Origin: an uncultured Nitrospira sp.
Lineage (GTDB): Bacteria; Nitrospirota; Nitrospiria; Nitrospirales; Nitrospiraceae
Length of the DNA: 41,996 nt
Direction of reading: 5' to 3'
NCBI GenBank assembly: GCA_902500715.1
Contig: CABVRO010000013.1
Span: 1 to 41,996 of the forward strand
Part shown: in pieces, positions 16,029 to 34,602 of the stretch
How positions within the stretch are numbered: position 1 is the first letter of the stretch
Layout: the number at the start of each line of letters is the position of its first letter
The notes under the pieces: generated by a model
What the model was told of the DNA's origin: nothing
The model's input: only the letters and a program-made list of their open reading frames with translations
The model's database searches: none
Made by a program: the position numbers and the translations under genes

Positions 16029-16038
16029 CACGCAGCGT

Positions 16039-18105: not shown

Positions 18106-18331
18106 CGAAGGGCACATAGCATACCGTGGGTCCCGTCCCGGCGGTGTCGGGCATGGTCGGGTGGAAGAAAAGAACAAGGACCATATGGTTAGAGATATGC
18201 TCACGCAAAAGGCATGCTTGTGGGATTTTCGGCACGCAGATAGGCGATACGCGAATTCTGCGAGGATCTGTGCGATTCGGTCGCTCTTCGCAATGGACGA
18301 AGTTGAGAGAGAGGCGCTAGATTCGAGTCGC

Positions 18332-19124: not shown

Positions 19125-19856
19125 TCATGTCGGCAGGTACACTCCGGACTGTTTCAAGAGGTGATGAAGCATTCGCTCCAACGACGGTTTATCCTCCTCA
19201 TGTGTTATGAGCTCGAGCAGGCAGGCAATGGCGTCGTACCAAAGGCCGGATTCGGAATAGCGATAAATCGCGTCACGATCGCAAGAGGTCCAGGTGCATG
19301 GCATGCCCAGTGAGCAGGCTTCACTGTAGGGGAGCCGTTCGATGGTTCCGCCTGCGACGATGTCCCGAGAAGGTTCATCCGGGTCTACGACCAACGTGAC
19401 GAACCATCGGTAGGATTCCTGCTCCTTAAGTTCAATTCCATATTCCCGAGGCCTGGTACAGTGGATGCCTGTATGAAGAGGTGAGGGGAGCGTGCGTTCA
19501 AGAATAGGGCGAATTCCGCGGGAATCCACCACTGTCACGGTCATGGCGTGAGTGGTGGGCAGAGACAGGTACCAACAGAGTGACGGATCGCCTTTGATGG
19601 TAAAGGCGACATGATCCGGGACCAAGGCGATCAACAGGGGAACTCCCGACTCGGCACCCCTGCTCTGCCCGCCGATGCGCGCCCGCGGCGCATGAGCCTT
19701 TCGCGGTTTATATAGGGGCATAGGCGAGTCAGGAGCATTGACGAAGTCGGCGGCGCGAGCGTCCTGAAGTGTTGACGAAAACCAGACGGCGCTGCGCCAG
19801 GAAATCGGCCACGTCATAGCGACAACAACAAACAGGGTGAGTTTAAGGTAGTACAT
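19125..19856 (-). CDS. DUF928 family exported protein, copy 2
   Basis: The 243-residue protein has an N-terminal hydrophobic signal or anchor (about 5-25). It matches the DUF928 pattern I know from cyanobacteria: 'PRARIGGQSRGAES', then 'ALVPDHVAFTIKGDPSLCWYL', a central 'YRWFVTLVVDPDEPSRDIVAGGTIER', and a C-terminal 'GLWYDAIACLLELI'. The biochemical function of DUF928 is not known. It is the last gene of the export locus, 39 bp behind its paralogue. Compared with that copy it shares the same blocks but has diverged clearly elsewhere. The ribosome-binding site at the ATG is weak, so coupling to the upstream gene is likely. Several Cys residues (for example 'CSLGMPCTW') may form disulfides in the periplasm. 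Confidence 0.75.
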   Translation of the reverse strand: MYYLKLTLFVVVAMTWPISWRSAVWFSSTLQDARAADFVNAPDSPMPLYKPRKAHAPRARIGGQSRGAESGVPLLIALVPDHVAFTIKGDPSLCWYLSLPTTHAMTVTVVDSRGIRPILERTLPSPLHTGIHCTRPREYGIELKEQESYRWFVTLVVDPDEPSRDIVAGGTIERLPYSEACSLGMPCTWTSCDRDAIYRYSESGLWYDAIACLLELITHEEDKPSLERMLHHLLKQSGVYLPT

Positions 19857-19895
19857 CCTGTGCCGATCGGTAGGTAGATGGACTCAGGAATCTCG

Positions 19896-20627
19896 TCAGC
19901 GCAGGCCGGCATGGGCCTGCGCAAGGTCCCATTCGGCCACGTCATATAAGCCGACTTGCTTGAGTAAAGCCGCCCGCTGTTTACGCAGACCCGTATCGCC
20001 CGGATCGGATGCAATGAGATCGCACAGGCAGGCCATGGCATCGTACCAGAAACCCGTGGCGGCACTCGTCCTCACCGCTTCCTGGGTGCAGGTGGTTGTG
20101 GCGCCCAATACCATACACTCACTGAACTCACAGCGCTCGATCATTCCTCCGGTCACGATATCGCGTGAGGGAGAATCCTCGTCTTTGATCACGGAGATAT
20201 ACCACCGGTATTGGATGTGTGCTTGAAGCGTGAAGCCGAGATCCTCAAGGTTGACGGCGTGAACACCGGCGTGGTTCGGAGGCGTGATGAACCGCTCGAC
20301 GAGCGCACGAATCGATCGCTCATCGATCAGGGTGAATTTAATCGGCAACGATGTGTGCTTGGAAAGGAACCAATTGAGAACCGGATGTTGCCTGACGGTG
20401 ATGCCGACGTGGTCTGGAACGAGTGCGGCGACGGCGGGGTCTTCACCCTCGCTGCCTCTCAAGGTTCCGCCGATGCGGGCCCTGGGTGTCATCTGCTGAG
20501 GAGCCCGGTACGTCGGTATCCCCGGCTCTCCCTCCGCCGGCGCCATGCCGGTCCCTGCGAGCAGTAGGGCGAGGAGGCACGCGGCGCCGAATGCCTGAGC
20601 CCTTCTGCGATGGGTCCATGTTGCCAC
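19896..20627 (-). CDS. DUF928 family exported protein, copy 1
   Basis: The 243-residue protein uses a GTG start (20625-20627), preceded by GAGGAAAGG with 7-base spacing. The frame opens upstream but lacks a ribosome-binding site there. A signal peptide with core 'FGAACLLALLLAGTGMA' leads into DUF928 blocks: 'PRARIGGTLRGSEG', 'ALVPDHVGITVRQHPVLNWFL', 'YRWYISVIKDEDSPSRDIVTGG' and 'GFWYDAMACLCDLIA'. In families known to me, DUF928 genes cluster with CHAT and haemagglutinin-like exoprotein genes, as here. It lies 94 bp behind the CHAT gene. It is probably periplasmic or outer-membrane associated. Molecular role unknown. Confidence 0.78.
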   Translation of the reverse strand: MATWTHRRRAQAFGAACLLALLLAGTGMAPAEGEPGIPTYRAPQQMTPRARIGGTLRGSEGEDPAVAALVPDHVGITVRQHPVLNWFLSKHTSLPIKFTLIDERSIRALVERFITPPNHAGVHAVNLEDLGFTLQAHIQYRWYISVIKDEDSPSRDIVTGGMIERCEFSECMVLGATTTCTQEAVRTSAATGFWYDAMACLCDLIASDPGDTGLRKQRAALLKQVGLYDVAEWDLAQAHAGLR

Positions 20628-20721
20628 GATGACACCTTTCCTCAGTGGCGTGAGCAGGCTTATCTCAGCAGGATACTCAAAAAAGCCGTTCAGCAAGGCC
20701 GCAGCGAGGTCCCCCCGCGAG

Positions 20722-23034
20722 TTACAGCCAATTGTTCAATAACAGAAATGCCGACCAATAGGCCGGATGTTCATAGAGCCGGTCCGATAGCAACTTCAGT
20801 TGTGCACTTTGCAAAGCACGTGCCTTCGAGATCGATGAGTCATGCAATTGACGATAGAATTCCGAGACCAATTCTGACGACGCGTCATCGTTGATGAACC
20901 AAAGCGTGGCGAGTGCACTCCTGGCTCCTGCCTTCACTGCAATGCCGGCAAGTCCAAGTGCGGCCCGGTCGTCGCCGATGCCAGTCTGACAGGCGCTCAG
21001 GGTCAGGAGCTCCAATGGGTCCTGGCGAAATCGAAACAGCCCCACCAGTCGCTCTAACTGTGTCATGGTCAGTTTATCGTCGAACGTCAACAGAAATGAT
21101 TGATTCACGTCCGTTGCAAATTGCCCGTGCGTGGCGATGTGGAGGATGCTGTACCGGCCGTCTTTCAATTCCCCTTCCAGGCGTGGCGCGATGAAATTGT
21201 TGTCAAGGAGCTGTTCGCCCTTGAAGAGCGAATGAATGGACTCCATCTCCTCGGCGACATGCGGGAGGGCAGGGAACCCTTGCACCGCCTTGGTCAACCC
21301 GCTGGAGAGTAGTTGCGCTCTCGTTCGATTGATGGGGCGCGGATCGGTCAAATCGAGGCCCGGCGTCATGGCGACGGCGTATTGCGCGATTACGAATCGA
21401 TCTCCGTCATGAAGCGCCGACATGGGGATGGTGCGAAGCGGTCCGTCTGGGACGAAGACCAGCGTGTCAACCTTGAGTCGGCGCAGGTCCTGGACCAGCG
21501 GGCGGAGCAACCACTCAAACAATTGCTGCGCATGGGGAAGGTACTCGCGGGTCGTCCGCTTTTCGAGCATGCGCCGGAAACTGCGTATCTCATCCGTCAG
21601 GATCGACGCCGTCACCGGAACGGAGTGTCGTCTGAGGCCGTCCGGGTAACTCACGAGCAGCTCCGTGCGATCGGCGAAGATGATCGGGTAAATGATGGCC
21701 GTCGCAGGGGACACCGCATCCAGCTTGGTCAGCCGGGCCTGCATCTGATCGACGCAGTCATCCCGGAAATAGTCCCGGAGTTCGGCCGCTTTATAGGCCT
21801 CGATCGCGTCGCGCGCCGCTCGTAAATAGGGGGCGGCCTCAACGTCATCGTTCATCAGGGCCGCCCGTTGCAGCAGCAGATCGGCCAATTCGAAATAGAG
21901 TGAACGGATCGATCGGTGGTCGGGTTCCAGCGAGGTTTGCGACGCGAAGGCCACTTCGGCGCGGATCGGTTGCAGGGTGGCCGCCGCTTCTTGATAGGCC
22001 GATAATGCGTCGTCGAGCTTGCCCAGGCTTGTGAGGAGGCGGCCGCTTTGCCACTGCCACCGGTACAAGGATTCCGGCGCACCGACGGACTGCGCCGCGA
22101 AGACGGCGCGACGGGTGAGTCGGAGGGCTTCATCCAGCCGGTGCTCGCCCTCATAGAGATGTCCGAGATGCCCGTAGGCATAGGAGGCTAGGCGCGTATT
22201 GCCGGACTCCTCCGCCATCGCGGCCGCCTCGTGCAGCAGCGTCGCCGTCTGTTGCAGCGCGCGCGCCTGCACCTCCGGATGATCGGCCGACAGGTCACGA
22301 TACCCCAACGCCAAATTGATGAGCCCATCGGCCTTGTCGTGTGAAGCCGGCATTGCGGCCAGGCGCTTGTCGGCCTCACTCAAGGCCGTTGCCGCCTCAT
22401 CGAATCGGGTCAACCGCATCGCGACCCGCGCGGCATTGACGCGGGCGCGCACGAAGAGCATGCCGAGGGTTTCTTCCGTTGCCCCTGCCGCACTCTCTTG
22501 AAACGCGGCCAGCGCCTCCGGAAACCGGCCCTGTAACGCCAGGACCATGCCGAGGTCGTTCCGGAGTGCCGCCGAAAAAGTTTTCAGATTGTGTGTCTGC
22601 GAGAGGGCGGCGGCCTGCGTCAGATAGTCAGAGGCGGTGTCGTATTGCCGGGTGATCACATAGGTCTTGCCGAGCTCCCACAGGGTCACGGTGAGCCAGG
22701 TGGAATCGTCGAGCCTGCGCGCGAGTTGCAGGGCCAATTCCTGCTGCAGGAAGGCCTGATTCAAGTGCCCGAGGCTGCGGGCCGCAGAAGCGGCATGGGA
22801 GAGCGCTTGTACATGGCCCTTGGTCTGGCCGGCTTGGTCGTAGAGCTGCGCGGCCTCTTTCCAGGCGACGAGCGCCTGCTCCAACTCGCCTCGCTGCGCC
22901 GCCGCACGGCCGCGCTGCATGAGCTCATCGGCCGAAGCCCCGGTGCCGGCGGCCGACGAGACCGGGCAGAGGAGCAGGAGCATGATCCCGAATCTGAGCA
23001 CCGCCTGAAGTGAAGCGCGAAGCCGTGATACCAT
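20722..23034 (-). CDS. Exported TPR-CHAT domain protease
   Basis: This 770-residue protein has a signal peptide (core 'FGIMLLLLCPVSSAAG', cleavage near 30). Roughly residues 35-400 form a helical tetratricopeptide-repeat solenoid, and the C-terminal 300 form a CHAT (caspase-HetF-associated with TPRs) domain. The caspase-like dyad is intact: H636 in 'HIATHGQF' and C682 in 'LSACQTGIGDD', followed by 'GLAGIAVKAGARSALATLW' and a terminal 'YWSAFLLLNNWL'. CHAT proteins are clan CD cysteine proteases, often activated through the TPR part. The ATG at 23034 follows GAGAGG with 6-base spacing, better than an ATG at 23082. Its position between the TpsB pore and the DUF928 genes suggests it acts on exported proteins of this locus. 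Substrate unknown. Confidence 0.9.
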   Translation of the reverse strand: MVSRLRASLQAVLRFGIMLLLLCPVSSAAGTGASADELMQRGRAAAQRGELEQALVAWKEAAQLYDQAGQTKGHVQALSHAASAARSLGHLNQAFLQQELALQLARRLDDSTWLTVTLWELGKTYVITRQYDTASDYLTQAAALSQTHNLKTFSAALRNDLGMVLALQGRFPEALAAFQESAAGATEETLGMLFVRARVNAARVAMRLTRFDEAATALSEADKRLAAMPASHDKADGLINLALGYRDLSADHPEVQARALQQTATLLHEAAAMAEESGNTRLASYAYGHLGHLYEGEHRLDEALRLTRRAVFAAQSVGAPESLYRWQWQSGRLLTSLGKLDDALSAYQEAAATLQPIRAEVAFASQTSLEPDHRSIRSLYFELADLLLQRAALMNDDVEAAPYLRAARDAIEAYKAAELRDYFRDDCVDQMQARLTKLDAVSPATAIIYPIIFADRTELLVSYPDGLRRHSVPVTASILTDEIRSFRRMLEKRTTREYLPHAQQLFEWLLRPLVQDLRRLKVDTLVFVPDGPLRTIPMSALHDGDRFVIAQYAVAMTPGLDLTDPRPINRTRAQLLSSGLTKAVQGFPALPHVAEEMESIHSLFKGEQLLDNNFIAPRLEGELKDGRYSILHIATHGQFATDVNQSFLLTFDDKLTMTQLERLVGLFRFRQDPLELLTLSACQTGIGDDRAALGLAGIAVKAGARSALATLWFINDDASSELVSEFYRQLHDSSISKARALQSAQLKLLSDRLYEHPAYWSAFLLLNNWL

Positions 23035-23153
23035 TCCAGACCTCTCTGCTGCGGTCGTCTCGTTCAGCAGATTGCGGAACAATTATTTCCCACCTCCGAA
23101 AAGAGAGTGCGGAGTCGAAGGCGCCATCGAGAACGCTTCCCCCAAAGAGCCAA

Positions 23154-23280
23154 TGGCGTATGGTTCATAGGGTATGGCCAGAACTCGAGAGTGGGCGTCT
23201 TTGCTATCAGCTATACGCCATCAGCCATACGCTCTTAAGTCCCCGGGCGGCACGTTTCACGCTTCACGGTCCACGGCTGT
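23154..23280. repeat. Mosaic of short degenerate repeats between the CHAT and TpsB genes
   Basis: This non-coding stretch has a 14-base tandem pair ATCAGCTATACGCC / ATCAGCCATACGCT at 23206-23233, a reverse-oriented GCGTATGG at 23156, and TTCACG-type units at 23254-23276. Such mosaics resemble dispersed intergenic repeats. They make this 284-bp gap the longest inside the export locus, so a separate promoter for the CHAT and DUF928 genes is possible. Confidence 0.5.
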
Positions 23281-23290
23281 TGAGCGAGAA

Positions 23291-23310
23291 GCCGGCGGAC
23301 TTTTTCAGCC
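23291..23310. repeat. Partial second copy of the 3030-3153 repeat end
   Basis: The 20 bases here, read on the minus strand, match the lolA-side element end around 3036-3055 at nearly every position (core GAAAAAGTCCGCCGGC). The copy starts just 8 bases past the TpsB stop codon. The rest of the 124-bp element is missing, so this is a truncated or end-only copy. Confidence 0.6.
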
Positions 23311-23318
23311 TCCTATTA

Positions 23319-25079
23319 TTAGAGCACCTGTACGACGAGTTGCAGATGGATACCGTGGTCCTGCAGGTTGCCTTCTCCACCCCGGACATGATTGAGCTGT
23401 TGCCCCCAATAGATTTCGAAGCGCGCACGTTCTTGGGGCAGGATCATCCAACGCAACCCGACTCCCACGCTTGCCAGGGTTTGAGGATCGGGCGTCTCGC
23501 CTTTGGCGTTCCAAGCATGGCCGAAATCGACGAATTGCGCAAACTGCAGCCGGTCTTCGCCGGATGCGAACCGCAGCAGTGGAAAGCGCGATTCAAATGA
23601 GGCCAGCACGGCATCGTCCCGCACGAGCGTATTCTCACGATATCCGCGCACGCTGAAACGTCCGCCGACGGGCATTTGTTCCAGAGGAAAGAGGCGGTCG
23701 TTGGCCACCTGCGCTGCCACGCGCCCCAACAACTGCACGCCCCACCAGTCCTCCAGCCGCTTCACCGCCTGCGCCTGGCCCAACCAGGAGAAAAATTGGC
23801 CGTCAGGCAGAGGACCGCTGTTGGTCGTCGCTCCCAGGACATCCAGCCCGACACTGAACCGGGACAGGGCGGCGAAGACGAATGAGGGCGAGCGATGGGT
23901 ATATTCCTGCAGGAACCGCAGGGCACTGACCGTGGCCACCCCCGTGGTGGATGAGCCTGGAATAAACAGAGAGGGAAGGCCGGGCGCGTCGAAGGCGGAG
24001 GTCGTTTTCAGATAGAGATGTTCCCCGACGAGGGAGAGCGCCAACTCGTCGGTGACGGTGCGGTAGACCGGTTGCCGGAGTGCCAGGCCGATGATTTGAG
24101 TATCGACATTCAGATCCAGGGTGCGAAAGGGATCTTCCACCACTAAGAACGCATTCTTCCGGTAATAGGCCGTCAGCGTCGTGTCGTACGCATTGAGCGG
24201 CAGGCTATACGAGGTATCGATGATCGGATTCACCCCGTTGGAGCGGCCATAGGTAAAGATGAACTGATCGCCATGACCCGTGAGATTTTGGTGGGCCACC
24301 GTGGCGAGTCCCCGTTCCGCGCCGACCACCGGGGTTTGATAGTTGTTGAAGTCCAGCCAGGCCCTGAATGGGTTGGCATCTTTGACCCGCAGGTTCAGTA
24401 CGCTTTCGCCCCGCACGTCGCCCGGTTTCAACTCCGCGTTGACCCGTTCGATGCGCGCATCCTGCTGCAGCAGTTGAATCCGTTCCTGAAGCGGCTGGAT
24501 GCTCACGGGAGTGCCAATGCCGCGGGCCACGCGATCCCGCAGATAGGAACTGCGGAACCACTGGTTGCCCTCGATGTCGATTCGAGAGAGCCGGCCCTCG
24601 ACGATCTGAATGACGATGGTGCCGAAGGTGACGTCCTGGTCGGGGATGATGGCTCCGGAAGTGAGATAGCCTCTATTCACATAGAGGAGGGTAAGAGCCA
24701 GGCGAACCCGCTCCAGATCCTCCGTCGTCAATTCACGATTGCGATAGGGGGCGACGACGTCGGCCAGCTCCGCGTCGGAAAACACGGTACTGCCGGTGAC
24801 GTGGATGTCATGGACGAAGACTCGCACCGATCCCAATCGGTTCTGTGGTGGTGTCAACGATTCGGGGGGCACCTCAGGAAGAATGGGGCTGGGCGGCGGG
24901 GTGTCGGGCGCTTTGAACTCTTCCTTCAACGGCGCGGGAGGTTTCCCCGATCGGCCGGTCGGGTCGAAAATCGGAGGGAGCGGCGGCGCAACCTGGGCCG
25001 TGGCCGGAATGTCGGAGAGGCACATGCCCATCAGGAGGCCTGCGCACAATGGTCGGGTGTGGGAAATCCACAGTCGCAC
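23319..25079 (-). CDS. TpsB outer-membrane secretion pore (ShlB/FhaC/HecB family)
   Basis: This 586-residue protein is the outer-membrane partner that recognises and threads TpsA exoproteins to the cell surface in two-partner (type Vb) secretion. It has a signal peptide (cleavage near ATA-Q, about 28), a Pro-rich linker, and POTRA domains (about 85-255) with 'VHDIHVTGSTVFSDAEL', 'LYVNRGYLTSGAI' and 'IVEGRLSRIDIEGN'. A 16-strand barrel with the conserved VRGY loop motif at 477-480 follows. The final residues 'LQLVVQVL' end hydrophobically rather than with Phe. The start codon is a GTG with AGGG 7 bases upstream. It follows the second TpsA gene by 38 bp, so both exoproteins probably share this pore. 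Confidence 0.9.
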   Translation of the reverse strand: MRLWISHTRPLCAGLLMGMCLSDIPATAQVAPPLPPIFDPTGRSGKPPAPLKEEFKAPDTPPPSPILPEVPPESLTPPQNRLGSVRVFVHDIHVTGSTVFSDAELADVVAPYRNRELTTEDLERVRLALTLLYVNRGYLTSGAIIPDQDVTFGTIVIQIVEGRLSRIDIEGNQWFRSSYLRDRVARGIGTPVSIQPLQERIQLLQQDARIERVNAELKPGDVRGESVLNLRVKDANPFRAWLDFNNYQTPVVGAERGLATVAHQNLTGHGDQFIFTYGRSNGVNPIIDTSYSLPLNAYDTTLTAYYRKNAFLVVEDPFRTLDLNVDTQIIGLALRQPVYRTVTDELALSLVGEHLYLKTTSAFDAPGLPSLFIPGSSTTGVATVSALRFLQEYTHRSPSFVFAALSRFSVGLDVLGATTNSGPLPDGQFFSWLGQAQAVKRLEDWWGVQLLGRVAAQVANDRLFPLEQMPVGGRFSVRGYRENTLVRDDAVLASFESRFPLLRFASGEDRLQFAQFVDFGHAWNAKGETPDPQTLASVGVGLRWMILPQERARFEIYWGQQLNHVRGGEGNLQDHGIHLQLVVQVL

Positions 25080-25117
25080 GTACGATCCCTATTCGCCTGG
25101 TCCTCAGGCTGGACTTG

Positions 25118-28100
25118 TCACGATCGACAGCCTGGTACCAGGTCCTGTACGCCATGTGGCGGCAATGGATTAATCCGGTCCGCCACCTGTTCAACGATTG
25201 CCCCTTCCCGATAGGCAGTTTCAGCGTGTAACCGTGTCGAGGCGTCTGCCGACTGGATGGAATCGGCGTCCGCCGACAAGAAGGGACTCATCAGCCAGCC
25301 GCCCGGTTCCGACGGCAGCGTGTCTCGCCCTTCCACGACGAAGCTGCTCAATTGACCATAGGCTTGCGCCGCGCAGCGTTGTTGCGCGAGCGGCTGTGCT
25401 TGCAACGGCCGTTGCGGCAGCGTGGCCAAGGTGTTGCTCAAGCTCGACACCGGCGATTGAATGGACACGGCCCCGCTCAGGCCGAATTGGGATGAGGCGC
25501 TGACTACACTGCTCGGATCGGCGAGGAAGGTCCCGGCGATGATGCTGATGTTGCCGCCTTGCCCTTCCACGGCTTGGGCGAGCACCTGGCTGTTTTGCAT
25601 CGTCACGACGGCGGGATCGAGAAGAATGTTGCCGCCGGACGTGTTGGGCCCGCCCTTGACCGACGTACTGAGCTGGCTGTTCACGAGTCGGATCGACTCG
25701 ATGGCTTGGATGGTGATGTTGCCGCCGCTCGCCTGAGTCGCATCGGTGGTGATGGACCCGTTCTGGCTTGAGAACTGCTCTCCGGCGTTGATCGTGATAT
25801 GGCCTGCATTGCCGGAGCCGCTGCTGCTGGCGGTGATTCTCGCGCCGTCATGCACCGTCACCATCTCTCGAGCGTTCAAGACGATATTGCCGCCCGTCTG
25901 AGTGCCGGTCGAAAGGGCCGAAATCTCTCCTTCGTGCAGCGATAGGGTTCCCGCCGACAATATGATATTGCCGCCAGGATCTTGAACGGCCGCGGATCGC
26001 GCTCGAACGTCATGCACGTTGGAGGAGATCGTCGCGTTGCGCAGTTCGATGGGCCCCCCCGAGTTCAGTTCGATCTTGCCGCCCAGGGCATCAATCCTGG
26101 TATCAGTCAGCAAATCGGTGGCGTTCAAGCGTATCGATTTTGCCGGGGTCAGGGGTGCGCTGCCCAGAGCAGGTTGTCTCCGGCCACTGATCGTGATCGT
26201 CCCTGCGCCTCCGGCTCCCGTGCTGCTGCTGGAAATGACCACCCTCGTCGGATCGTTCGGATTCAGTATGCGTGGAGCGTCCAGGGTTCCGCCTGGTCCG
26301 GTACCCGGCCGAGTGGTCAGATTATCGACCTGCAAATCCATTCGGCTGGCGACGCGGGTTCCCTGCGTGGGCGCGATAATGCCCCCGCCGATGATGTCGA
26401 GGCTTTCCGCCACCAGCAGGAGGCTGCCTTGCACGCTGCGCCCATCCGACACCACGACACTTCGTTCCCCGGCGCCCACTACGTCGATCAATTCTCCGGC
26501 GAGCGTCTTCACGTTCGAGACATCGTTGGCTTTGGAATTGACGATCGAATGATCCAGGATGGTCCGGTCGGCACGGATTCTCAGGTAGCCGGGAAGGCCG
26601 CTATGTTGAGCCTCGACGGTGACCTCCGAATTGGTGAGCGCCACCAGACCGGTGGCTCTGTCCGGGTATAACGTGTCCCAGAGAGCGCCTTCTGAAAAAT
26701 GATGATCACCGACGATTTTTGTGATCCCGGCTTGCGCTCTCCCCCGGCTGGTATTGGTGATGGAGGAATTGGTGGCGATCAACGAATTTTCCGGCCGCAA
26801 CCAAATTTCCCCCGCGCTCGGCCCTCCCTGGCACAGCGGGCAGGCACCGATGTCCGACACGAGCGCATCCGCCCTGATCGTGCTGTCTTGCAGGACGATA
26901 TCCTTCGCCATGATGTCGATATTGCTGAATCCTTGATAACGTGCGGGCTGACCGTTTGGTTTATTGGCTTCGATCGTGTAGTCCTGGGTCGCAACCGAAA
27001 TATGGGAGTCATCGAACGAAGCCCGACCATCCGTCCGCATGATCACTTTGCCGCCTGGGGCGTGGCCGATCGCGTCGGAATGAATGTCCGTGCCCCGGAT
27101 ATCGAAGTCTCGCGCGAAATGATAGGTGATGCTTCTATCCGGCTCCGAGTTTGGTGTGGTGATGTGTTTGTACGTACGCGTGCTGGAGGAGGTGATGCCC
27201 GGCAGGCCTTGAATGGTAATATCACCGGCCTGCCCGCCGAAGCAGCCGTCACAGTTGCTGCTGCTGGAAAAGAACACGCGTCCGTCAGGCCCCGCGCGGG
27301 TGCTCAACGTGGCCACGTTCAACGTGATCGCCCCGGCATCCGCTCCTCCCGTCGTGTCGGCCCGTATGGCGGTGCCGTTGCTCAACTCCATCTGCTGCGC
27401 TGTGATGGCAATGTTGCCCGGGGCCATTGTCGGGTCGGCCGCATTGGTGACGTCCGTCACGATCTGAGTGTTGCTCAGCAGCAGAGCATCGGCGGGTCTC
27501 CCTGCCTGGCCCGTGACGGCCATGGACCCGGCTCCACCCCGCCCTGTGCTGGTGCTGGCGATGGTCACCGGAGCGGCATCGGCGAGCGGAAGACCATCGG
27601 TTCCGACATTGCTGCGCAAGGTGCCTACTTCGAACCTGATATCTTCCGGTGTTCCATCGACTGCGGAGGTCAAGACGTTCGAGCCATGCGAGAGGGTCAT
27701 GTTCTCAGCCTGGACGGAGATGCCGCCGACAGGCGAGGAAGAGGACGAGGCGTGGCCGGTCGCCGTCGCATGGGCCTCGAGCGTCGCTCCCTCCAGATTG
27801 AATTGCCCGCTTCGAATCACAATGCGGCCAGCGGAAGGCGCGCTCGTCGTCAGGACGGTACCGGACCCGAGGGAAATGGTTCCCAAGGCTGAAAACCCGC
27901 TCAATGTGGAATCGATGAACGGTGTCGCTGCCCCATGACCAGCTATTTCTCCGGGCGAGCCGACCGCCGCCAGAGTGATCTGCCCGCCGGGGGCCGAGAG
28001 GCGGGTGGGCTGTGAAGCGCCGTTGCCGAGCGTGCCGGAGACAACCTCGATGTTCCCGCCGACGAGCGATATGCCCTGGCCTTCGGTCACCGCGAGCCGT

Positions 28101-28696
28101 CCGCCTTGCACGGTAATTGCCCCTGGATTCGAGCCTAAAAATCCAAAGGCCGCGACCGGAGCGTTTGTGATCGAGGTGTCGAGTGAGGCCGGTAAGGCTT
28201 GAAACGTGGCTCCGTCGGCGAGGCGCAGATAATCGGCCGTCGTGAAGCTCACCGAGCCGCCGACATTCAAAGAGGCAGTTGGACCGAAGACGATTCCCGC
28301 CGGGTTCATCAAGAACAGATTGGCTGCGCCGAAACCGGTGGTCTGAAGGGTGCCGAAGATGTTGGACGGTTGGCCGCCGGTCACGCGGCTGAGAATGTTC
28401 GTGGTTGGAAGCGCCGTCTCGTTGACGAAATTGGCGATCGTACTGGTCGGCACGCCAAACTCACCGAAGCTGTGAAAGAGATTCGGCCCGCTGCCGGGGC
28501 GCGTGCCGCCGGTGATGTCATAGACGGGTCCGCTCTTGGTCACAGTGGTATTCAGCCCCGACGCCGTGATGGGCGGCGTGACTTGGGCATGGCCCCACTC
28601 CGGAAGGCTGGGCAGAAGCAGCCCGGATGTGAGCAGCCCTATCCACAGCAAGGGGCCGCTGATGTGACGGCTGGCGATGAGGAATCTCCTACGCAT
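25118..28696 (-). CDS. TpsA exoprotein, FHA N-terminal domain, copy 2 (1192 aa)
   Basis: This is a large surface or secreted beta-helical protein of the filamentous haemagglutinin type. The signal peptide (about 1-38, ending 'EWGHAQ') leads into the TPS secretion domain with 'NLFHSFGEFGVPTS', 'NIFGTLQTTGFGAANLF' and 'LFLMNPAGIVFGP'. Gly/Ser/Thr/Asn-rich beta-helix repeats follow, many ending 'GNI-I-A' or 'GAITL'. It holds two CxxC motifs (C482-DG-C485 and C619-PL-C622), unusual for this fold. The C-terminal block 'CAAQAYGQLSSFVVEGRDTLP' is shared with copy 1. The longest frame starts at 28843 inside the neighbouring gene; I use the ATG at 28696 because it directly precedes the signal peptide. 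The gap to copy 1 is 40 bp. Likely an adhesin or matrix protein; the ligand is unknown. Confidence 0.88.
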   Translation of the reverse strand: MRRRFLIASRHISGPLLWIGLLTSGLLLPSLPEWGHAQVTPPITASGLNTTVTKSGPVYDITGGTRPGSGPNLFHSFGEFGVPTSTIANFVNETALPTTNILSRVTGGQPSNIFGTLQTTGFGAANLFLMNPAGIVFGPTASLNVGGSVSFTTADYLRLADGATFQALPASLDTSITNAPVAAFGFLGSNPGAITVQGGRLAVTEGQGISLVGGNIEVVSGTLGNGASQPTRLSAPGGQITLAAVGSPGEIAGHGAATPFIDSTLSGFSALGTISLGSGTVLTTSAPSAGRIVIRSGQFNLEGATLEAHATATGHASSSSSPVGGISVQAENMTLSHGSNVLTSAVDGTPEDIRFEVGTLRSNVGTDGLPLADAAPVTIASTSTGRGGAGSMAVTGQAGRPADALLLSNTQIVTDVTNAADPTMAPGNIAITAQQMELSNGTAIRADTTGGADAGAITLNVATLSTRAGPDGRVFFSSSSNCDGCFGGQAGDITIQGLPGITSSSTRTYKHITTPNSEPDRSITYHFARDFDIRGTDIHSDAIGHAPGGKVIMRTDGRASFDDSHISVATQDYTIEANKPNGQPARYQGFSNIDIMAKDIVLQDSTIRADALVSDIGACPLCQGGPSAGEIWLRPENSLIATNSSITNTSRGRAQAGITKIVGDHHFSEGALWDTLYPDRATGLVALTNSEVTVEAQHSGLPGYLRIRADRTILDHSIVNSKANDVSNVKTLAGELIDVVGAGERSVVVSDGRSVQGSLLLVAESLDIIGGGIIAPTQGTRVASRMDLQVDNLTTRPGTGPGGTLDAPRILNPNDPTRVVISSSSTGAGGAGTITISGRRQPALGSAPLTPAKSIRLNATDLLTDTRIDALGGKIELNSGGPIELRNATISSNVHDVRARSAAVQDPGGNIILSAGTLSLHEGEISALSTGTQTGGNIVLNAREMVTVHDGARITASSSGSGNAGHITINAGEQFSSQNGSITTDATQASGGNITIQAIESIRLVNSQLSTSVKGGPNTSGGNILLDPAVVTMQNSQVLAQAVEGQGGNISIIAGTFLADPSSVVSASSQFGLSGAVSIQSPVSSLSNTLATLPQRPLQAQPLAQQRCAAQAYGQLSSFVVEGRDTLPSEPGGWLMSPFLSADADSIQSADASTRLHAETAYREGAIVEQVADRINPLPPHGVQDLVPGCRS

Positions 28697-28736
28697 ACGG
28701 CCTATTTCAATCGACCGGTCCCTTACATGGTCATGG

Positions 28737-31700
28737 TCAGGACCCGCACCCGGTCCCTCCCTCGAGAAGATTTCGCAGCGACGAGGAGGTCCGCTCATCG
28801 GACGGCGTTCCCGCCTGCTCGGCGCTTGGCGATGAGGATCCAAATGAATGTCTGGAGGCGAGATGCGCTTGTGGCGGAGGCACGTCTTCGGCCATCCATG
28901 CCAGGGGACTCATGAGCCACCCACCGGGTTCGAAAGGCAGCGTATCTCGTCCCGACACGACGAGGCTGCTCAGGTGACCGGACACCTGCGCGGCGCAGCG
29001 TTGACTGAGTAGCTGTTGGGCTTGCAGCGGGCGTTGCGATAGCGTGGCCAGGCTGCCACTTAAACTGGAGACCGGTGATTGAATAGTCACGGTGCCGCTC
29101 AACCCGAACTGAGACGACGCACTCACGAGGCTGGTTTGATCGGCAAGAAACGTCCCGGCTGCGATGCTGATGTTGCCGCCAGCTCCCTGCACGGCTTGCG
29201 CGAGGATCTGACTGTTCTGGAGCGTCATAATGGCTGGATCGATCGTGATATTGCCGCCGGAAGTGGTCGGTCCGCCCTGAACAGACGTATCGATCTGGCT
29301 GTTCACGAGCCGGATTGCATCGGTGGCCTGCACGGTAATATTCCCACCACTGGCCTGGCTGGCTTCCGTGGTCACAGATGCATTCTGACTGAGGAACTGA
29401 GCGCCGGCATTAATGGCAATGTTGCCGGCATTGGCCGGGCCGGTGCTGCTCGCGGAAATTGATGCGCCGTTGTTCAGTGCGACGGATTGACCGGCGGCGA
29501 GAGAGATGTTGCCACCTTCTCCGGAATCAGGACCCGTTCCAATGGCGCGGCTGAAGAGGCCGGATGGAGTTCCATCGACCATCGTGCCGGCTGCGGAGAT
29601 TTGATCGGTAGCGATGATCGTGATGGTCCCGCCTCGCCCCGAATTCACTGTGCCGCTATTAATAGTTCCTCCGCTGCCGAAACTCATCGCCCCGGTGTTG
29701 ATCGTGACGTTTCCGGCATCGCCGCAAGGGCCAGTGCAGAGGTCGGTGCCTACCGTCCTGGTGAAAATGCCGCTACCACGGCGGCTCCCCAGGTTAAACG
29801 AGGGTTCGTTGGGGTCTGTGGGCCGTTCTCCGGAGAGAGAGGCTTGTTTGGTGGTAAGGGTCACGTCGCCGCCACGGCCGCTGGTTTGCGTACTACTGTC
29901 GATTCGAGCCCCACCCTCGATGTTCATCTGCGGTGTCGCAATGACAATCGCGCCGGCATCCCCTCCTGTACCGATCATCGGATCTCCAAATGAGTTCGTG
30001 AAGAGACCCGTGGGTCGTATTCCGCCTCCCGGACTGGAAGGATCGTCTGAGAGTGTGAGATGCTCGGTTGCGGTTATCTCAATCGCGCCAGCAGTCCCGT
30101 CTCCACGGGTTTGACTGGTGATCGTGCTACCGTTCCGGAGTTCAATCGTATTGCCTGCAATCGTGATCCCTCCGCCCGGGTTGAGCCACGTCGTCACATC
30201 TATCTGCGAGGAGTCAGCGATGATGCTCTGTCCATCGACTCGGATATTCCCTGCGCGCTCAAATCCACTGGCGCCGAGACCCGAAAAATTCGTCAGCTGA
30301 ATGTCTCGGGCTGAAAAGGTGATGTCGCCGCCGCCACCACCCAAATCGGCGATGGTCAAGATTTGCGAAGATGTGAGATGAATGGTGTCCGCCGTCATTG
30401 TCACATTCCCGGCAGTGCCGGAGGCTTCCTGTCCCGCAAGAAGAGCGGGAAAGACTCCTGTATTGATGAGTCCGTTCTCCAATCGGATATCCGTTGCGGT
30501 GATGTTTACATCGCCGCCTTGTCCACCCGCCGCTCCGACTGTGCCGCTGTCGATGAACGTTTCCAAGCCCGTCAGGGTTGCTTGAAGTTCTCCGGTTGTG
30601 AAGCTGATGGCTCCGGCTCGGCCCGAGCCGGATGTATGAGTATCTATGAGGGTCAAGGAGTCTTCCGCTTGGGCGATCACCTCGATAGTGGCTGACTCAA
30701 TTCGAATGGCGCCTGCATTCCCGGAATCCGAAGTCCGTGCGGTGAGCGCAGGATCCGTGTGGGCAGTGATCGACAGGTCACCGGTGACGAGAATGTTGAT
30801 CGCGGTGGCAGTTCCTGCGGTACTGCCGGTATCGGCGGAGATGGTTGCATTGGCCATCACTAACCTGCCGCCTCGTATTTGTACCGTGCCGGCCGCATCA
30901 GCCGACGTATCCAACGTTGAGCCGCCTGAGAGCGAAATGTTGCCCATGTTCGTAAATGATTGCCCATTGATGTTCGGTTCGGATTGCTGGTTTGACGAAA
31001 GAATTTCTCCAGGTGAGGCCACACTTGCCAGGGTGATTTGTCCTCCTGGAGCAGCGAGGTTGTAAGCAGGCTGTAGGGTGTCGGATGGTCCTTCAATTGT
31101 GACGTCTCCGCCTACAAGCGAGATGGTTTGCCCCTCTGAAACCGCGAGCTGACTACCCAGCAGGGTGATCGCCGCTGGGTTCGATCCCAAAAATCCAAAC
31201 GCCGCCACCGGCGCGCTGGAGACGGACGCGTCTGCCGGTCCGGGAAGCGCATTGAAATGAGTGCCATCCGTTAAGCGCAAATAATCGGCCGTTGTGAAAC
31301 TCACCGACCCCCCGACATTCAAAGCCGCATTCGGGCCGAAGACGATCCCGGCCGGATTCATCAAAAACAAATTGGCATTTCCGAATCCGGTGGTTTGGAT
31401 CATGCCGGAAATGTTCGACGGATTGCCCCCGGTGACGCGTCCAAGAATGTTGGCTGTAGGTGTGGTCGTGTCATTCAAGAAATTGGCGATGTGGTTGGTG
31501 GGAACGCCGAACTCACCGAAGCTATGAAATAAATTCGAACCATTCCCAGGCCTGACCCCTCCGGTGATATCGAGCCGAGTGGTGTCGGCGGGGCCTGCGA
31601 TCGGCGCACTGATGTGGGTATTCAGGCCGGAGGATGTGATCGGGGAAGTTTGCGCTGCGAGGGGCTCACTCAGAAACAGCATGATCAGCAACTGGCTGCC

Positions 31701-31775
31701 AAAGAATCGAGGGCTGAACCATCGGGACGGCTGCCTTCGAAGGAGAGCACGAGGGTATCGGGAGCGACGCGTCAT
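28737..31775 (-). CDS. TpsA exoprotein, FHA N-terminal domain, copy 1 (1012 aa)
   Basis: This is the first of two filamentous haemagglutinin-like exoproteins. It has a long signal peptide (about 1-42, 'FLSEPLAAQ'), a TPS secretion domain with 'NLFHSFGEFGVPTN', 'GGNPSNISGMIQ' and 'ANLFLMNPAGIVFGP', and a beta-helix of Gly/Ser/Thr-rich turns. The last 130 or so residues are nearly those of copy 2, ending in the 'RDTLPFEPGGWLMSP' block plus a divergent tail. One Cys pair, C680 and C684, sits in the helix. The ATG at 31775 follows AGGGGG with 5-base spacing; the frame itself opens at 31913. No protease or lipase domain is visible, so structural or adhesive roles are most likely. It lies 76 bp behind the Cys-rich lipoprotein gene. 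Confidence 0.88.
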   Translation of the reverse strand: MTRRSRYPRALLRRQPSRWFSPRFFGSQLLIMLFLSEPLAAQTSPITSSGLNTHISAPIAGPADTTRLDITGGVRPGNGSNLFHSFGEFGVPTNHIANFLNDTTTPTANILGRVTGGNPSNISGMIQTTGFGNANLFLMNPAGIVFGPNAALNVGGSVSFTTADYLRLTDGTHFNALPGPADASVSSAPVAAFGFLGSNPAAITLLGSQLAVSEGQTISLVGGDVTIEGPSDTLQPAYNLAAPGGQITLASVASPGEILSSNQQSEPNINGQSFTNMGNISLSGGSTLDTSADAAGTVQIRGGRLVMANATISADTGSTAGTATAINILVTGDLSITAHTDPALTARTSDSGNAGAIRIESATIEVIAQAEDSLTLIDTHTSGSGRAGAISFTTGELQATLTGLETFIDSGTVGAAGGQGGDVNITATDIRLENGLINTGVFPALLAGQEASGTAGNVTMTADTIHLTSSQILTIADLGGGGGDITFSARDIQLTNFSGLGASGFERAGNIRVDGQSIIADSSQIDVTTWLNPGGGITIAGNTIELRNGSTITSQTRGDGTAGAIEITATEHLTLSDDPSSPGGGIRPTGLFTNSFGDPMIGTGGDAGAIVIATPQMNIEGGARIDSSTQTSGRGGDVTLTTKQASLSGERPTDPNEPSFNLGSRRGSGIFTRTVGTDLCTGPCGDAGNVTINTGAMSFGSGGTINSGTVNSGRGGTITIIATDQISAAGTMVDGTPSGLFSRAIGTGPDSGEGGNISLAAGQSVALNNGASISASSTGPANAGNIAINAGAQFLSQNASVTTEASQASGGNITVQATDAIRLVNSQIDTSVQGGPTTSGGNITIDPAIMTLQNSQILAQAVQGAGGNISIAAGTFLADQTSLVSASSQFGLSGTVTIQSPVSSLSGSLATLSQRPLQAQQLLSQRCAAQVSGHLSSLVVSGRDTLPFEPGGWLMSPLAWMAEDVPPPQAHLASRHSFGSSSPSAEQAGTPSDERTSSSLRNLLEGGTGCGS

Positions 31776-31851
31776 TCGCACCCCCTGCAGCGTTCGCCCT
31801 TGAGTCGGACGAGCATCACCGCCAAGCAGGACACGATTGATTCTTTTGTGA

Positions 31852-32169
31852 TCATGGCGTGCACTGGCATGAACAGTACCCTGATCCTGACACGTAGGTT
31901 TTGCAAGTTCCACCTCCGCCTACACATCGGCTCCCTTCGCTTCTGCATTTCTTTCCTGATTGACACGTTCCATTCACCGCTTGATCTCCGGGGTTAGCGT
32001 TCGGGTGTGGGCCGGGACACCAGCCATGTGGTCGTTCAGCGCCCCCAGCACCCCCTTCCGGTCCGCCACAATCGAGGGTAACCGTTGTACAGGCCTGCAA
32101 GGCCGCCATAAGCATGCCGGACAACAACATGCCCCGGCAGATTCTGAAGATGGGTCGTAAGGTCAGCAT
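31852..32169 (-). CDS. Cys-rich small lipoprotein, unrecognised family
   Basis: The 105-residue product has a type II signal peptide with lipobox 'LQAC' (lipidated C27), so it should be anchored in the inner or outer membrane facing the periplasm. The mature part is Gly/Pro-rich and has nine further Cys residues, dense near the end ('YCSCQC'), suggesting several disulfides or a metal site. The ATG follows GGAGAG with 5-base spacing. I know no matching family. It sits between the unknown secreted protein and the TpsA genes with gaps of 46 and 76 bp, so it is probably part of the same transcript. It may assist exoprotein folding or anchoring, but that is a guess. Confidence 0.65.
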   Translation of the reverse strand: MLTLRPIFRICRGMLLSGMLMAALQACTTVTLDCGGPEGGAGGAERPHGWCPGPHPNANPGDQAVNGTCQSGKKCRSEGSRCVGGGGTCKTYVSGSGYCSCQCTP

Positions 32170-32215
32170 AATGACTCTCCATTTAGGTGTGGCGCGATTC
32201 TCGCTCCCGGGTTAT

Positions 32216-32989
32216 TCATCGTGGATCATCGCCCGCTGTCCGTGCTTCGATAGCCAGTGCCTTGAAGACTTCCTCGATGGGTTGTTCCCCGGTCTCCTCG
32301 CTTGTCGGCACACCTGAGACCGGAATGAGCATGACTATTCCCGGCGCGTTGAAGTAGCCCAGGTACAATCGATTGAACGCTGGGATTTCAATCAGGAACG
32401 GAGCGAGATCTATTTTAAGTTCACTCCGTCGGCTAGAGAGTTGCCTGATGAGGTTTCTTGAACCCCACTGGACGATTTTGCCGCTCTTTGTTTCGGCGCC
32501 GAGTCGCACGGTGATGGCGGAGAGGGCCGTTTCCGCTTGTTCCCGTTTATCAACTGCGATGGGGACGATAAACTGAACCGGTCTCTTTCGCGCGAGCAGT
32601 TTTGCCGCGTCACCGTCATAGCTCTGTAGCTGTGTGAGGCCGATTCGAAAGACCGGGAATGGAGGGAGCGCCACAAGGTTTCCGTCCGTCACTTGGGACA
32701 GCGAATCGTAGCCTAATCTCTTCGCGTACGATTCATCCTTTTGTACCAACCGCCGCAAGATCTCTACCCCGGTGGTCTCAGCTAAGACCTTCGCCTCTGA
32801 AAGACGTTTTTCTGAAGCGATCAGGGGTGTGAGGGATTGAATAGTTTGCTCGCTCTTCTGCTTGGGCGCTCCGGTTTCTGCTATTGCTGTTGCGCCCATG
32901 TGGTCAACCATGAGCAGAAAGGCGAGCAGCAGAGCGTGGACGGTTCCTCGGCACCTCCCACTCTGGTCACCGGCGCTGGATCTCGACAT
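32216..32989 (-). CDS. Secreted protein of unknown family (257 aa)
   Basis: This 257-residue protein begins with a signal peptide (core 'VHALLLAFLLMVDHMGATA'). The rest is a mixed alpha/beta sequence with no family I recognise. A helical, Lys/Glu-rich region (about 45-90) precedes a strand-rich half with 'RPVQFIVPIAVDKREQ' and 'LYLGYFNAPGIVMLIPV'. The ATG at 32989 follows AGGAG with 7-base spacing. The start overlaps the upstream papain-like protease gene by 23 bases, a sign of tight co-expression and possibly of a protease-inhibitor, chaperone or propeptide relationship. That functional idea comes from gene order only. No Cys occurs in the mature part, unlike the next gene. Confidence 0.7.
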   Translation of the reverse strand: MSRSSAGDQSGRCRGTVHALLLAFLLMVDHMGATAIAETGAPKQKSEQTIQSLTPLIASEKRLSEAKVLAETTGVEILRRLVQKDESYAKRLGYDSLSQVTDGNLVALPPFPVFRIGLTQLQSYDGDAAKLLARKRPVQFIVPIAVDKREQAETALSAITVRLGAETKSGKIVQWGSRNLIRQLSSRRSELKIDLAPFLIEIPAFNRLYLGYFNAPGIVMLIPVSGVPTSEETGEQPIEEVFKALAIEARTAGDDPR

Positions 32990-33797
32990 AAAACATCTCC
33001 TGTGCATGGCCAAATTCCCCGTAAGGATCAGATCCATTGCTCCCTATGAATTCTTCGAACGGCTGAGTGTTAAAGTCTGCATCTCGGTGATCGTTCACCT
33101 CCACGACTCGGAGTACATCATCGATGGCGCGGACGACTTGACTGTGTTTTCCCCCCTCCGCCCACCGGATCACGCTGATGAACGGACCGTTTTGACAGAG
33201 TTGTGTTTTCAGGGCATCGAAGTAGGCTGCCCACTCGGTTGGATCGGAGATCCTGGGCGCCATGAGGCGCTCATAGTCGAATTCAGAGCTGGCGAAGACC
33301 CAGTGCGGCCAACCACCTTGATCGCAAGCCGAAGGGGTATCGGTGAACCAACGATTCAGAGGGGCGAGGAATTCCCGAACTCCGCAGCAGTCGGCCCTGG
33401 ACAGGGATCCATTGACCCAATCGCATTGTCCGTTGGTCACCTTATGGAACTCCAGGACAACCTGCGCACTCGTCGCCCAACACCAGCCTGCGGCTTCCTG
33501 ATTATACGGACGCACCTCGTCTCTAAGCTTGCCGGGAGAGTCGCACAGAGACCGGGAGGTAGGGGTCTGTACTTGCCCCGACGTGTCACTCTGTCGGTCT
33601 CTGTCTCTTTGTTGTCCCCGCTCTTTCTGGCGCGCGATGAGTTCTGCAAGCGTGATCGGCTCTTTCGGCGGCAGATGAGCCGGTTCACCGGTTCCAATGG
33701 GAGCGCGAGGCGACAGTCTCACGTGAACCTCGGTACATGCCCACAGGAGCAACACCGAGAGCCCTATCGCCATCGCTCCGAACTTGTTCATCTTCAT
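32967..33797 (-). CDS. Papain-like cysteine protease lipoprotein (C70/AvrRpt2-like)
   Basis: This 276-residue protein has a lipoprotein signal 'VLLLWAC' (C21) and a polar, Arg/Gln-rich linker. A papain-like domain from about residue 95 has catalytic C106 in 'GWCWATSAQ', H218 in 'GGKHSQVV' and N235/D236 in 'VEVNDH'. The 'WCWATSAQ...QC...CC' pattern matches the bacterial papain-like peptidase group that includes AvrRpt2 (C70). It would be tethered in the envelope. The ATG at 33797 follows GAGG by 9 bases and overlaps, as ATGA, the stop of a possible leader frame. It is the first confident gene of the export locus. It could process the TpsA proteins or foreign proteins. All catalytic residues are present. 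Confidence 0.8.
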   Translation of the reverse strand: MKMNKFGAMAIGLSVLLLWACTEVHVRLSPRAPIGTGEPAHLPPKEPITLAELIARQKERGQQRDRDRQSDTSGQVQTPTSRSLCDSPGKLRDEVRPYNQEAAGWCWATSAQVVLEFHKVTNGQCDWVNGSLSRADCCGVREFLAPLNRWFTDTPSACDQGGWPHWVFASSEFDYERLMAPRISDPTEWAAYFDALKTQLCQNGPFISVIRWAEGGKHSQVVRAIDDVLRVVEVNDHRDADFNTQPFEEFIGSNGSDPYGEFGHAQEMFYVEIQRR

Positions 33798-34403: not shown

Positions 34404-34602
34404 TGCGTTCTTCCTAAAGTCATCGTGATGACGACGGTGATGTGAAGTGCTGGTTCGCCTCTTCAATGCGCAAACGCTGTGCCATAGGAATTTGCCGGCA
34501 GTGCCGAAAGCTTCCAGAGGAGACTTGTAGAGATTTGAATGACATCGGGTACTCCGATGATTCGTTCAATCGGAGCAACGGAAGGTATGGCCGGCGCGGT
34601 GT

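What the first reader, a model, noticed from the sequence alone, without database searches (positions are those of the whole stretch)
19125..33797. Two-partner secretion locus with two unrelated cysteine proteases and DUF928 proteins
Nine co-directional genes form one block: a papain-like lipoprotein protease, an unknown secreted protein, a Cys-rich lipoprotein, two TpsA exoproteins, TpsB, an exported TPR-CHAT protease and two DUF928 proteins. Most gaps are under 100 bp and every product has an export signal. TpsA/TpsB alone is a known secretion route, and TPS with CHAT and DUF928 is a combination I recall from cyanobacteria. Adding a papain-like lipoprotein and Cys-rich partners looks new. 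The inference is a surface system in which envelope proteases process or release the exoproteins, or respond to contact.
Basis: partly seen in the sequence, partly recalled or inferred. Interest (0 to 1): 0.82.

Follow-up and report, generated by a model that had tools for sequence, protein, structure and literature searches.

The report
Exchangeable protease cassette in surface-secretion operon
In nitrite-oxidising Nitrospira bacteria, a conserved machine for putting large proteins on the cell surface carries its own caspase-like protease, and is often joined by an exchangeable three-gene unit (a papain-like protease, its probable inhibitor and a cysteine-rich lipoprotein) that is inherited together with one type of surface protein; built-in proteases are described as absent from known operons of this kind.

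Summary
The nine-gene block is real and conserved, and consists of two units. A fixed chassis (TpsA tail, TpsB, TPR-CHAT, DUF928) recurs in order across Nitrospirota; cyanobacterial plasmids carry the same gene set. An accessory cassette (papain-like C70/C39_2 protease, unknown protein U273, Cys-rich lipoprotein) precedes TpsA in 19 loci and is absent from 20 further chassis loci. Cassette and TpsA passenger are exchanged together: in two sets of loci with similar flanks, the cassette plus about 75% of TpsA is replaced at matching break points. Sixteen of 19 cassette-linked TpsA form one clade (100/99) with a CxGxCG loop found in no other TpsA. Catalytic residues are invariant in both proteases (C70 20/20, CHAT 59/59). 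All 77 intact TpsA carry two C-terminal cysteines, like the disulphide anchor of HMW1/HxuA. U273 models as a cystatin-like fold resembling the prostaphopain B propeptide (Z 5.7, moderate); its divergence tracks C70 (r 0.83-0.91). Best reading: an anchored exoprotein, CHAT acting on the constant tail, C70 restrained by U273 acting on its own passenger. Cleavage is inferred, not shown. No description of the combination was found.

The parts
32967..33833 (-). C70: papain-like (C39_2/C70) cysteine protease, lipobox LLWAC; catalytic Gln112 (33498-33500), Cys118 (33480-33482), His230 (33144-33146), Asp248 (33090-33092)
   Evidence: PDB profile match to AvrRpt2 6hqz (E 6e-4) and streptopain (0.2)
32216..33037 (-). 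U273: exported protein of unknown family, modelled cystatin-like fold; proposed inhibitor/chaperone of C70
   Evidence: no Pfam family; AF2 pLDDT 79.6; VIA: designed cystatin folds Z 7.6 and 6.6, prostaphopain B propeptide Z 5.7 over 128 residues, multicystatin Z 5.3; a C70 gene adjoins every U273 gene found
31852..32169 (-). CysR: Cys-rich lipoprotein (lipobox LQAC)
   Evidence: equivalent small Cys-rich ORF between U273 and TpsA in all 18 cassette loci scanned; no Pfam match
28737..31913 (-). TpsA1: cassette-type exoprotein with TPS domain
   Evidence: clade of 16 cassette TpsA, support 100/99
29724..29738 (-). CxGxCG loop of TpsA1 (CTGPCG; codons of Cys726 and Cys730)
   Evidence: 16 of 19 cassette TpsA, 0 of 65 other TpsA rows, Fisher p 1.5e-14 uncorrected for relatedness
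28746..28997 (-). C-terminal two-cysteine anchor of TpsA1 (Cys973 in RCAA...SSLVVSGRD..P.EPGGWL, Cys1056)
   Evidence: 77 of 77 intact TpsA have the pair
25118..28843 (-). TpsA2: second exoprotein, with two other Cys pairs (531/534, 668/671) and the same C-terminal anchor
25127..25375 (-). C-terminal two-cysteine anchor of TpsA2 (Cys1157, Cys1239)
23319..25079 (-). TpsB: POTRA_2 plus ShlB/FhaC barrel transporter
20722..23082 (-). Exported TPR-CHAT caspase-like protease; His652 (21127-21129), Cys698 (20989-20991)
   Evidence: both residues invariant in 59 of 59 relatives
19896..20696 (-). DUF928a
   Evidence: AF2 pLDDT 85.2; fold of MtxA C-terminal domain 4z29, Z 10.1 over 160 residues
19125..19856 (-). 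DUF928b
   Evidence: a fragment of this gene is all that is left of the locus in G018

Best explanation
A surface-exoprotein locus with a constant chassis and an exchangeable module. TpsB exports TpsA; the two-cysteine tail of TpsA is held in or below the TpsB pore, as in HMW1/HxuA/CdrA, so the exoprotein stays anchored. The exported TPR-CHAT protease, which is inherited with the constant TpsA tail, TpsB and DUF928, cleaves or tests that periplasmic tail and so controls release, the job LapG does for CdrA; the DUF928 proteins (an Ig/Fn3-like plus TPR-like fold) act as periplasmic adaptors. The optional cassette supplies a second, passenger-specific protease: C70, usually a lipoprotein, is kept inactive or folded by U273 (propeptide/cystatin-like), and acts together with the Cys-rich lipoprotein on its own TpsA type, probably at or near the CxGxCG loop. 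Recombination swaps cassette and passenger as one unit while the chassis stays. Shown: gene content, conservation, exchange boundaries, invariant catalytic residues, co-divergence, cysteine pattern. Inferred: anchoring, both cleavages, inhibition by U273, the role of CysR.
For: Chassis order conserved in genus and family, and absent as a unit from an otherwise intact site in eight genomes examined. Cassette present in 19 loci, absent from 20 further chassis loci. Exchange unit: G003/G020 (96-97% identical flanks; 3.65 kb against 5.0 kb = cassette plus N-terminal 3/4 of TpsA1) and L124/L127/L128/L131, with breaks at about 74-77% of TpsA. Catalytic residues invariant in C70 and CHAT. C70-U273 distance correlation 0.83-0.91, and 0.82-0.90 after removing TpsB (p 0.0005); C70-TpsA 0.29-0.43 after removing TpsB (p 0.001-0.013). 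CxGxCG loop. Two-cysteine tail 77/77 with 0.0013 Cys per residue in the body of the protein; HMW1/HxuA disulphide anchor and CdrA/LapG release precedents (PMC5422565; PMC4694147). LapG (PF06035) absent from all 29 genus genomes. U273 fold; protease-inhibitor neighbours SpeB-Spi, a propeptide analogue, and staphopain-staphostatin (PMC2873492).
Against: No substrate, cleavage or localisation data. U273 matches lie at Z under 8, which can be a common arrangement only, and no sequence search links it to known inhibitors. C70-U273 pairs occur without TPS genes in three distant genomes, so TpsA need not be the substrate. Five divergent C70 have a plain signal peptide rather than a clear lipobox. Three cassette TpsA lack the CxGxCG loop. 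The Arg/Lys in the tail motif is not kept in cyanobacterial TpsA, so no CHAT site can be named. Cassette TpsA with the loop are one clade, so the loop-cassette link is partly shared descent.
Confidence: 0.5

Rival explanations
1. Protease toxin with immunity: C70 is a secreted or surface-displayed antibacterial protease and U273 its immunity protein; the TPS exoprotein is a delivery or contact device and the cassette varies because of competition between strains.
For: C70 and U273 are always adjacent and co-diverge; near-identical chassis carry cassettes of only about 20% identity; the pair also exists without TPS genes.
Against: Every C70 carries its own Sec or lipoprotein signal and is not fused to TpsA; no orphan U273 immunity copies were found in 396 genomes; no known toxin or defence model matches; the link to one TpsA type and its CxGxCG loop is not explained.
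Confidence: 0.2
2. Ordinary adhesin diversification: TpsA passengers are swapped under phage, grazer or niche selection, and the cassette is a passive hitch-hiker with a general envelope role.
For: Passengers vary with and without the cassette; the chassis occurs without it in most genomes.
Against: Hitch-hiking does not predict invariant catalytic residues over 20-34% identity, a clade of 16 TpsA all with the cassette, or the matching CxGxCG loop and full-length CysR.
Confidence: 0.2
3. HxuA-like nutrient capture: the anchored exoproteins bind an iron or haem carrier and pass it to the TonB-dependent receptors encoded directly downstream (13980-18204); the proteases degrade the carrier.
For: Two TonB receptors adjoin the block; HxuABC is a TPS operon with a TonB receptor and a disulphide-anchored TpsA (PMC5422565).
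Against: The TonB receptors stay in all eight genomes examined that lack the TPS locus, so they are independent; the site is simply where the locus lies in this genus.
Confidence: 0.08

Closest known systems
HMW1/HMW1B and HxuA/HxuB two-partner secretion (type Vb)
   Same: TPS domain, POTRA/Omp85 transporter, TpsA kept on the cell by a C-terminal region with two cysteines
   Different: Cysteines about 65-95 residues apart; two proteases, DUF928 and a swapping cassette in the operon; no HMW1C-type glycosyltransferase seen
CdrA/CdrB with periplasmic protease LapG (Pseudomonas)
   Same: Works like: TPS adhesin whose periplasmic C-terminal tail is the control point for a periplasmic cysteine protease (inferred here)
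   Different: LapG (C93) absent from all 29 genus genomes; a TPR-CHAT protease is encoded in the operon instead; a second, papain-like protease is added
FhaB/FhaC with SphB1 (Bordetella)
   Same: A surface-anchored protease matures a TPS exoprotein
   Different: SphB1 is a subtilisin encoded elsewhere; here the proteases are cysteine proteases inside the locus
SpeB-Spi and staphopain-staphostatin protease-inhibitor pairs; Bacteroides C10 protease-Bfi pairs
   Same: Papain-like exported protease with a co-encoded partner; U273 model resembles the prostaphopain B propeptide
   Different: C70/C39_2-like rather than C10 or C47; tied to a TPS exoprotein; no sequence similarity to these inhibitors found
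Cyanobacterial TPS-CHAT-DUF928(-CHASE2) gene clusters
   Same: TpsA, TpsB, CHAT and DUF928 side by side; TpsA with two C-terminal cysteines in the three checked
   Different: No cassette seen; a CHASE2 protein is often present; annotated only, no functional description found
CDI / polymorphic toxin loci
   Same: Constant secretion part and exchangeable part with a co-varying neighbour pair
   Different: No C-terminal toxin on TpsA; the variable part is the middle of TpsA plus upstream genes; the TpsA tail is constant

Membership tests
Two-partner secretion (type Vb) | TpsA with N-terminal TPS secretion domain | tested here: met
   PF05860 4.8e-39 and 9e-43
Two-partner secretion (type Vb) | TpsB with POTRA and Omp85-type barrel, encoded beside TpsA | tested here: met
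   POTRA_2 5.2e-22, ShlB 9.1e-27; adjacent in nearly all loci
Two-partner secretion (type Vb) | Secretion of TpsA through TpsB | not testable with these tools
   needs cells
HMW1/HxuA-type anchored TpsA | Two cysteines in the C-terminal anchor region | tested here: met
   77 of 77 intact TpsA
HMW1/HxuA-type anchored TpsA | Disulphide formed and C-terminus kept in the periplasm | not testable with these tools
   inferred from PMC5422565
LapG-controlled adhesin | LapG (Peptidase_C93) encoded in the genome | tested here: not met
   0 of 29 genus genomes, one control genome positive
CHAT (caspase HetF-associated with TPR) protease | CHAT domain with His-Cys dyad | tested here: met
   PF12770 8.9e-56; His652 and Cys698 in 59 of 59
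Papain-like C70/C39_2 peptidase | Score over the curated family cut-off | tested here: not met
   window protein 19.7 of 24 and 17.1 of 19 bits, although 19 and 17 of 20 relatives match at E <= 0.1
Papain-like C70/C39_2 peptidase | Gln-Cys-His(-Asp/Asn) catalytic residues | tested here: met
   Gln112, Cys118, His230 invariant in 20 of 20
Spi/cystatin-type inhibitor of a papain-like protease | Gene next to the protease gene | tested here: met
   19 of 19 U273 genomes
Spi/cystatin-type inhibitor of a papain-like protease | Cystatin- or propeptide-like fold | tested here: inconclusive
   prostaphopain B propeptide Z 5.7, multicystatin Z 5.3, designed cystatin fold Z 7.6, all under 8
Spi/cystatin-type inhibitor of a papain-like protease | Inhibits the protease | not testable with these tools
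   needs purified proteins
CDI / polymorphic toxin | Toxin domain at the C-terminus of TpsA with an immunity gene downstream | tested here: not met
   only the TPS domain is found in TpsA; tails are the conserved part
DUF928 | PF06051 over cut-off | tested here: met
   86.8 and 113.1 bits against 26

The most novel reading that the evidence does not exclude
A new class of two-partner secretion in which a constant secretion/release chassis with its own caspase-like protease is served by swappable modules, each consisting of an exoprotein passenger and a dedicated protease-inhibitor pair plus a Cys-rich lipoprotein that matures or attaches only that passenger through its CxGxCG loop: a modular, self-matched surface-display system that may serve recognition between Nitrospira lineages in biofilms.
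Probability: 0.4. Interest if true: 0.82.

Novelty: new variant of a known kind. Interest (0 to 1): 0.72.

Why it matters
[quoted passage not shown] Here two unrelated cysteine proteases are, one of them with a probable inhibitor, and that one travels with the exoprotein it probably serves. This gives a natural series of matched and swapped pairs with which to test protease-exoprotein specificity, a candidate function for exported TPR-CHAT proteases and for DUF928 (one passing mention in the paper library), and a candidate surface recognition system in bacteria that carry out nitrite oxidation.

Tried and rejected
Sequence links of U273 to Pfam or PDB: none. Hits of the C70 profile to designed SAKe proteins in the PDB cover 30 positions and were ignored. 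An Arg-specific CHAT site in the tail motif was considered and dropped, because the residue varies in cyanobacteria. Anti-phage defence: no PADLOC match beyond TPR. Promoter and terminator scans gave nothing above chance, which says little for this phylum. C-terminal toxin on TpsA: none found. A Pfam scan of more CysR members failed on wrong coordinates and was not repeated. Literature searches for TPS with CHAT or DUF928 found no description.
Full report
Observation. The block at 19125-33833 holds nine minus-strand ORFs as described. Pfam names two DUF928, a TPR-CHAT protein, a TpsB with POTRA_2 and ShlB domains, and two TpsA with TPS domains. The first gene product matches Peptidase_C39_2 and Peptidase_C70 just under their cut-offs, but 19 and 17 of 20 relatives match them, and Gln112, Cys118 and His230 are invariant among 20 sequences, most of them only 20-34% identical to the window's. 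A profile of these relatives finds AvrRpt2 (E 6e-4) and streptopain among solved structures. U273 and CysR have no Pfam family. Gaps are -107 to +46 bp except 236 bp between TpsB and CHAT. The window lies in a Nitrospira genome: its nearest named relatives are Nitrospira sp. UBC2, RBC073 and RBC_NOB1.

Chassis. In the genus, 18 of 29 genomes match DUF928, two of them only as remnants. In 14 the order TpsA(1-3 copies)-TpsB-CHAT-DUF928 is seen in full between the same flanks, a FadL-like porin and a TonB receptor. Eight genomes without the full locus have the porin and the receptor about 1,000 to 2,500 bases apart; one of them, G018, keeps the last 120 codons of DUF928b, so there the locus was lost. 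In 396 genomes of the phylum 89 have DUF928. Twenty such loci without a C70 match were fetched: 18 have TpsA, TpsB, CHAT and DUF928 together, two lack TpsA, or TpsA and TpsB, within reach. In cyanobacteria, Nostoc UHCC 0302 and Pseudanabaena ABRG5-3 plasmids carry TpsA, TpsB, CHAT and DUF928 together with a CHASE2 protein, others carry TpsA-TpsB-CHAT; all 11 plasmid records with DUF928 are cyanobacterial.

Cassette. C70 lies upstream of TpsA in G000, G008, G020 and G024 (62-68% identity) and, as a divergent version with all three genes, in G026 (24-32%). Profile searches of the phylum found C70 in 27 and U273 in 19 genomes. Sixteen of the 17 C70 matches with E <= 1e-8 lie on the same contig as DUF928 within 18 kb. 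Every U273 gene has a C70 gene next to it (19 of 19). In 12 genomes of a second genus the full order C70-U273-CysR-TpsA-TpsB-CHAT-DUF928 is present; the Cys-rich gene is there in all, although too divergent for the profile in most. Two more loci (G261, and Nitrospirales bacterium OFTM76) have C70-U273-TpsA with TpsB not adjacent. Three distant genomes have the C70-U273 pair without TPS genes. None of the 20 extra chassis loci has C70 or U273. The cassette is therefore accessory but old.

Exchange. Two close relatives, G003 and G020, are 96-97% identical over the flanks and the chassis; between them 3.65 kb in G003 is replaced by 5.0 kb in G020, which is the cassette plus the N-terminal three quarters of TpsA1. 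The last 236 residues of TpsA1 stay. In the second genus, L124, L127, L128 and L131 have chassis DNA 90-95% identical, yet C70 and U273 of most pairs are only about 20% identical (56% and 50% for L128/L131); similarity ends just upstream of C70 and resumes at nucleotide 2236-2314 of the roughly 3,000-base TpsA gene, about 74%. L128 and L131 share more of TpsA. Two independent cases with the same boundaries indicate that cassette and passenger move as a unit while the TpsA tail belongs to the chassis.

Passenger link. In a tree of 71 TpsA, 16 of 19 cassette neighbours form one clade (100/99) with no member lacking a cassette; the other three lie in a different clade. The 16 share a CxGxCG loop about 260-340 residues from the end, inside the exchanged part; none of 65 other TpsA rows has it. 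The three exceptions, L119-L121, have a shortened CysR that lacks the usual C-terminal cysteine-rich stretch, so loop and full CysR go together. Distances of C70 and U273 correlate at 0.83-0.91, and at 0.82-0.90 after removing TpsB; C70 and TpsA correlate at 0.29-0.43 after removing TpsB. The Fisher p of 1.5e-14 for the loop ignores shared descent and should be read as one strong association, not many.

Anchor. All 77 intact TpsA, including three cyanobacterial ones, have exactly two cysteines in the last 130 residues, one within 20 of the end and one 50-130 from it; five exceptions are truncated or frame-shifted ORFs; the middle of the proteins has 0.0013 cysteines per residue. The short TpsA of the second TPS-CHAT locus of this genome has the pair as well. 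HMW1 and HxuA keep their C-terminus in the periplasm by a disulphide loop that locks it in the TpsB pore, and CdrA is released when the periplasmic protease LapG cuts its C-terminal tail (PMC5422565; PMC4694147). LapG is absent from all 29 genus genomes. The exported TPR-CHAT protease, with His652 and Cys698 in 59 of 59 relatives, is inherited with this tail and is the natural candidate for that role. This step is inference.

U273 and DUF928 folds. The U273 model (pLDDT 79.6, core over 90) has no Foldseek match under E 0.001. The second look gives designed cystatin folds (Z 7.6, 6.6), the prostaphopain B propeptide (Z 5.7, 128 residues over model 72-258) and multicystatin (Z 5.3). These are under Z 8 and may mean only a common arrangement, but two of the top six are natural propeptides or inhibitors of papain-like proteases, which fits the gene's position. 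That the aligned part of 1x9y (residues 47-193) is the propeptide rests on my own knowledge of that entry. SpeB-Spi (Spi is a propeptide analogue), staphopain-staphostatin and Bacteroides C10-Bfi pairs are precedents (PMC2873492). The DUF928a model (pLDDT 85.2) matches the C-terminal domain of MtxA (4z29) at Z 10.1 over 160 residues, well above the next row at 6.5: an immunoglobulin/Fn3-like domain followed by TPR-like helices, described by its authors as a possible periplasmic interaction or sensing protein (PMC4439547).

Judgement. Shown: gene content, deep conservation of two units, joint exchange with matching boundaries, conserved catalytic residues, matched divergence, cysteine tail and loop. 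Inferred: anchoring, release by CHAT, passenger-specific action of C70, inhibition by U273, role of CysR. It is a member of two-partner secretion; it works like CdrA/LapG but is not that system. No description of TPS with CHAT or DUF928 was found in the open library; papers outside it may exist.

Noticed in passing
G000:C41 (L144 6174-11931): The same genome has a second TPS-CHAT locus: TpsB, a short TpsA of 425 residues with the same two-cysteine tail, and CHAT, without DUF928. A TpsB about 50% identical to the window's occurs in all 29 genus genomes.
   Followed up: partly
L056 5698-9153; L059 6454-12924: TpsA2 is broken into fragments in G020, and in G024 TpsA2 copies are duplicated and broken, with nearly identical tails, which points to decay and gene conversion among TpsA copies.
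   Followed up: partly
L126 9107-10376 and L132 7461-8616: The stand-alone C70-U273 pair is nearly identical in two genomes assigned to different families (G158, G103): recent transfer or contamination. The G103 C70 has an internal deletion.
   Followed up: no
L126 2673-3365; L134 11434-12309: A papain-type (C1A-like, by eye) protease gene lies near both stand-alone C70-U273 pairs.
   Followed up: no
L042 5269-6783 (G027): A C70-like domain is fused to the C-terminus of a beta-propeller-like repeat protein elsewhere in a related genome.
   Followed up: no
window 34218-34466: A small one-helix membrane protein upstream of the cassette has a look-alike at the same place in G026 (L060 4094-4300).
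   Followed up: no
L170, L171, L172, L173: Cyanobacterial DUF928 genes often sit next to CHASE2-domain proteins, a hint that DUF928 is tied to extracellular sensing.
   Followed up: partly
window 4080-18204: Downstream lie two tandem TonB-dependent receptors, two PAS/response-regulator proteins, a histidine kinase and an ABC-type substrate-binding protein; the receptors stay when the TPS locus is absent.
   Followed up: partly
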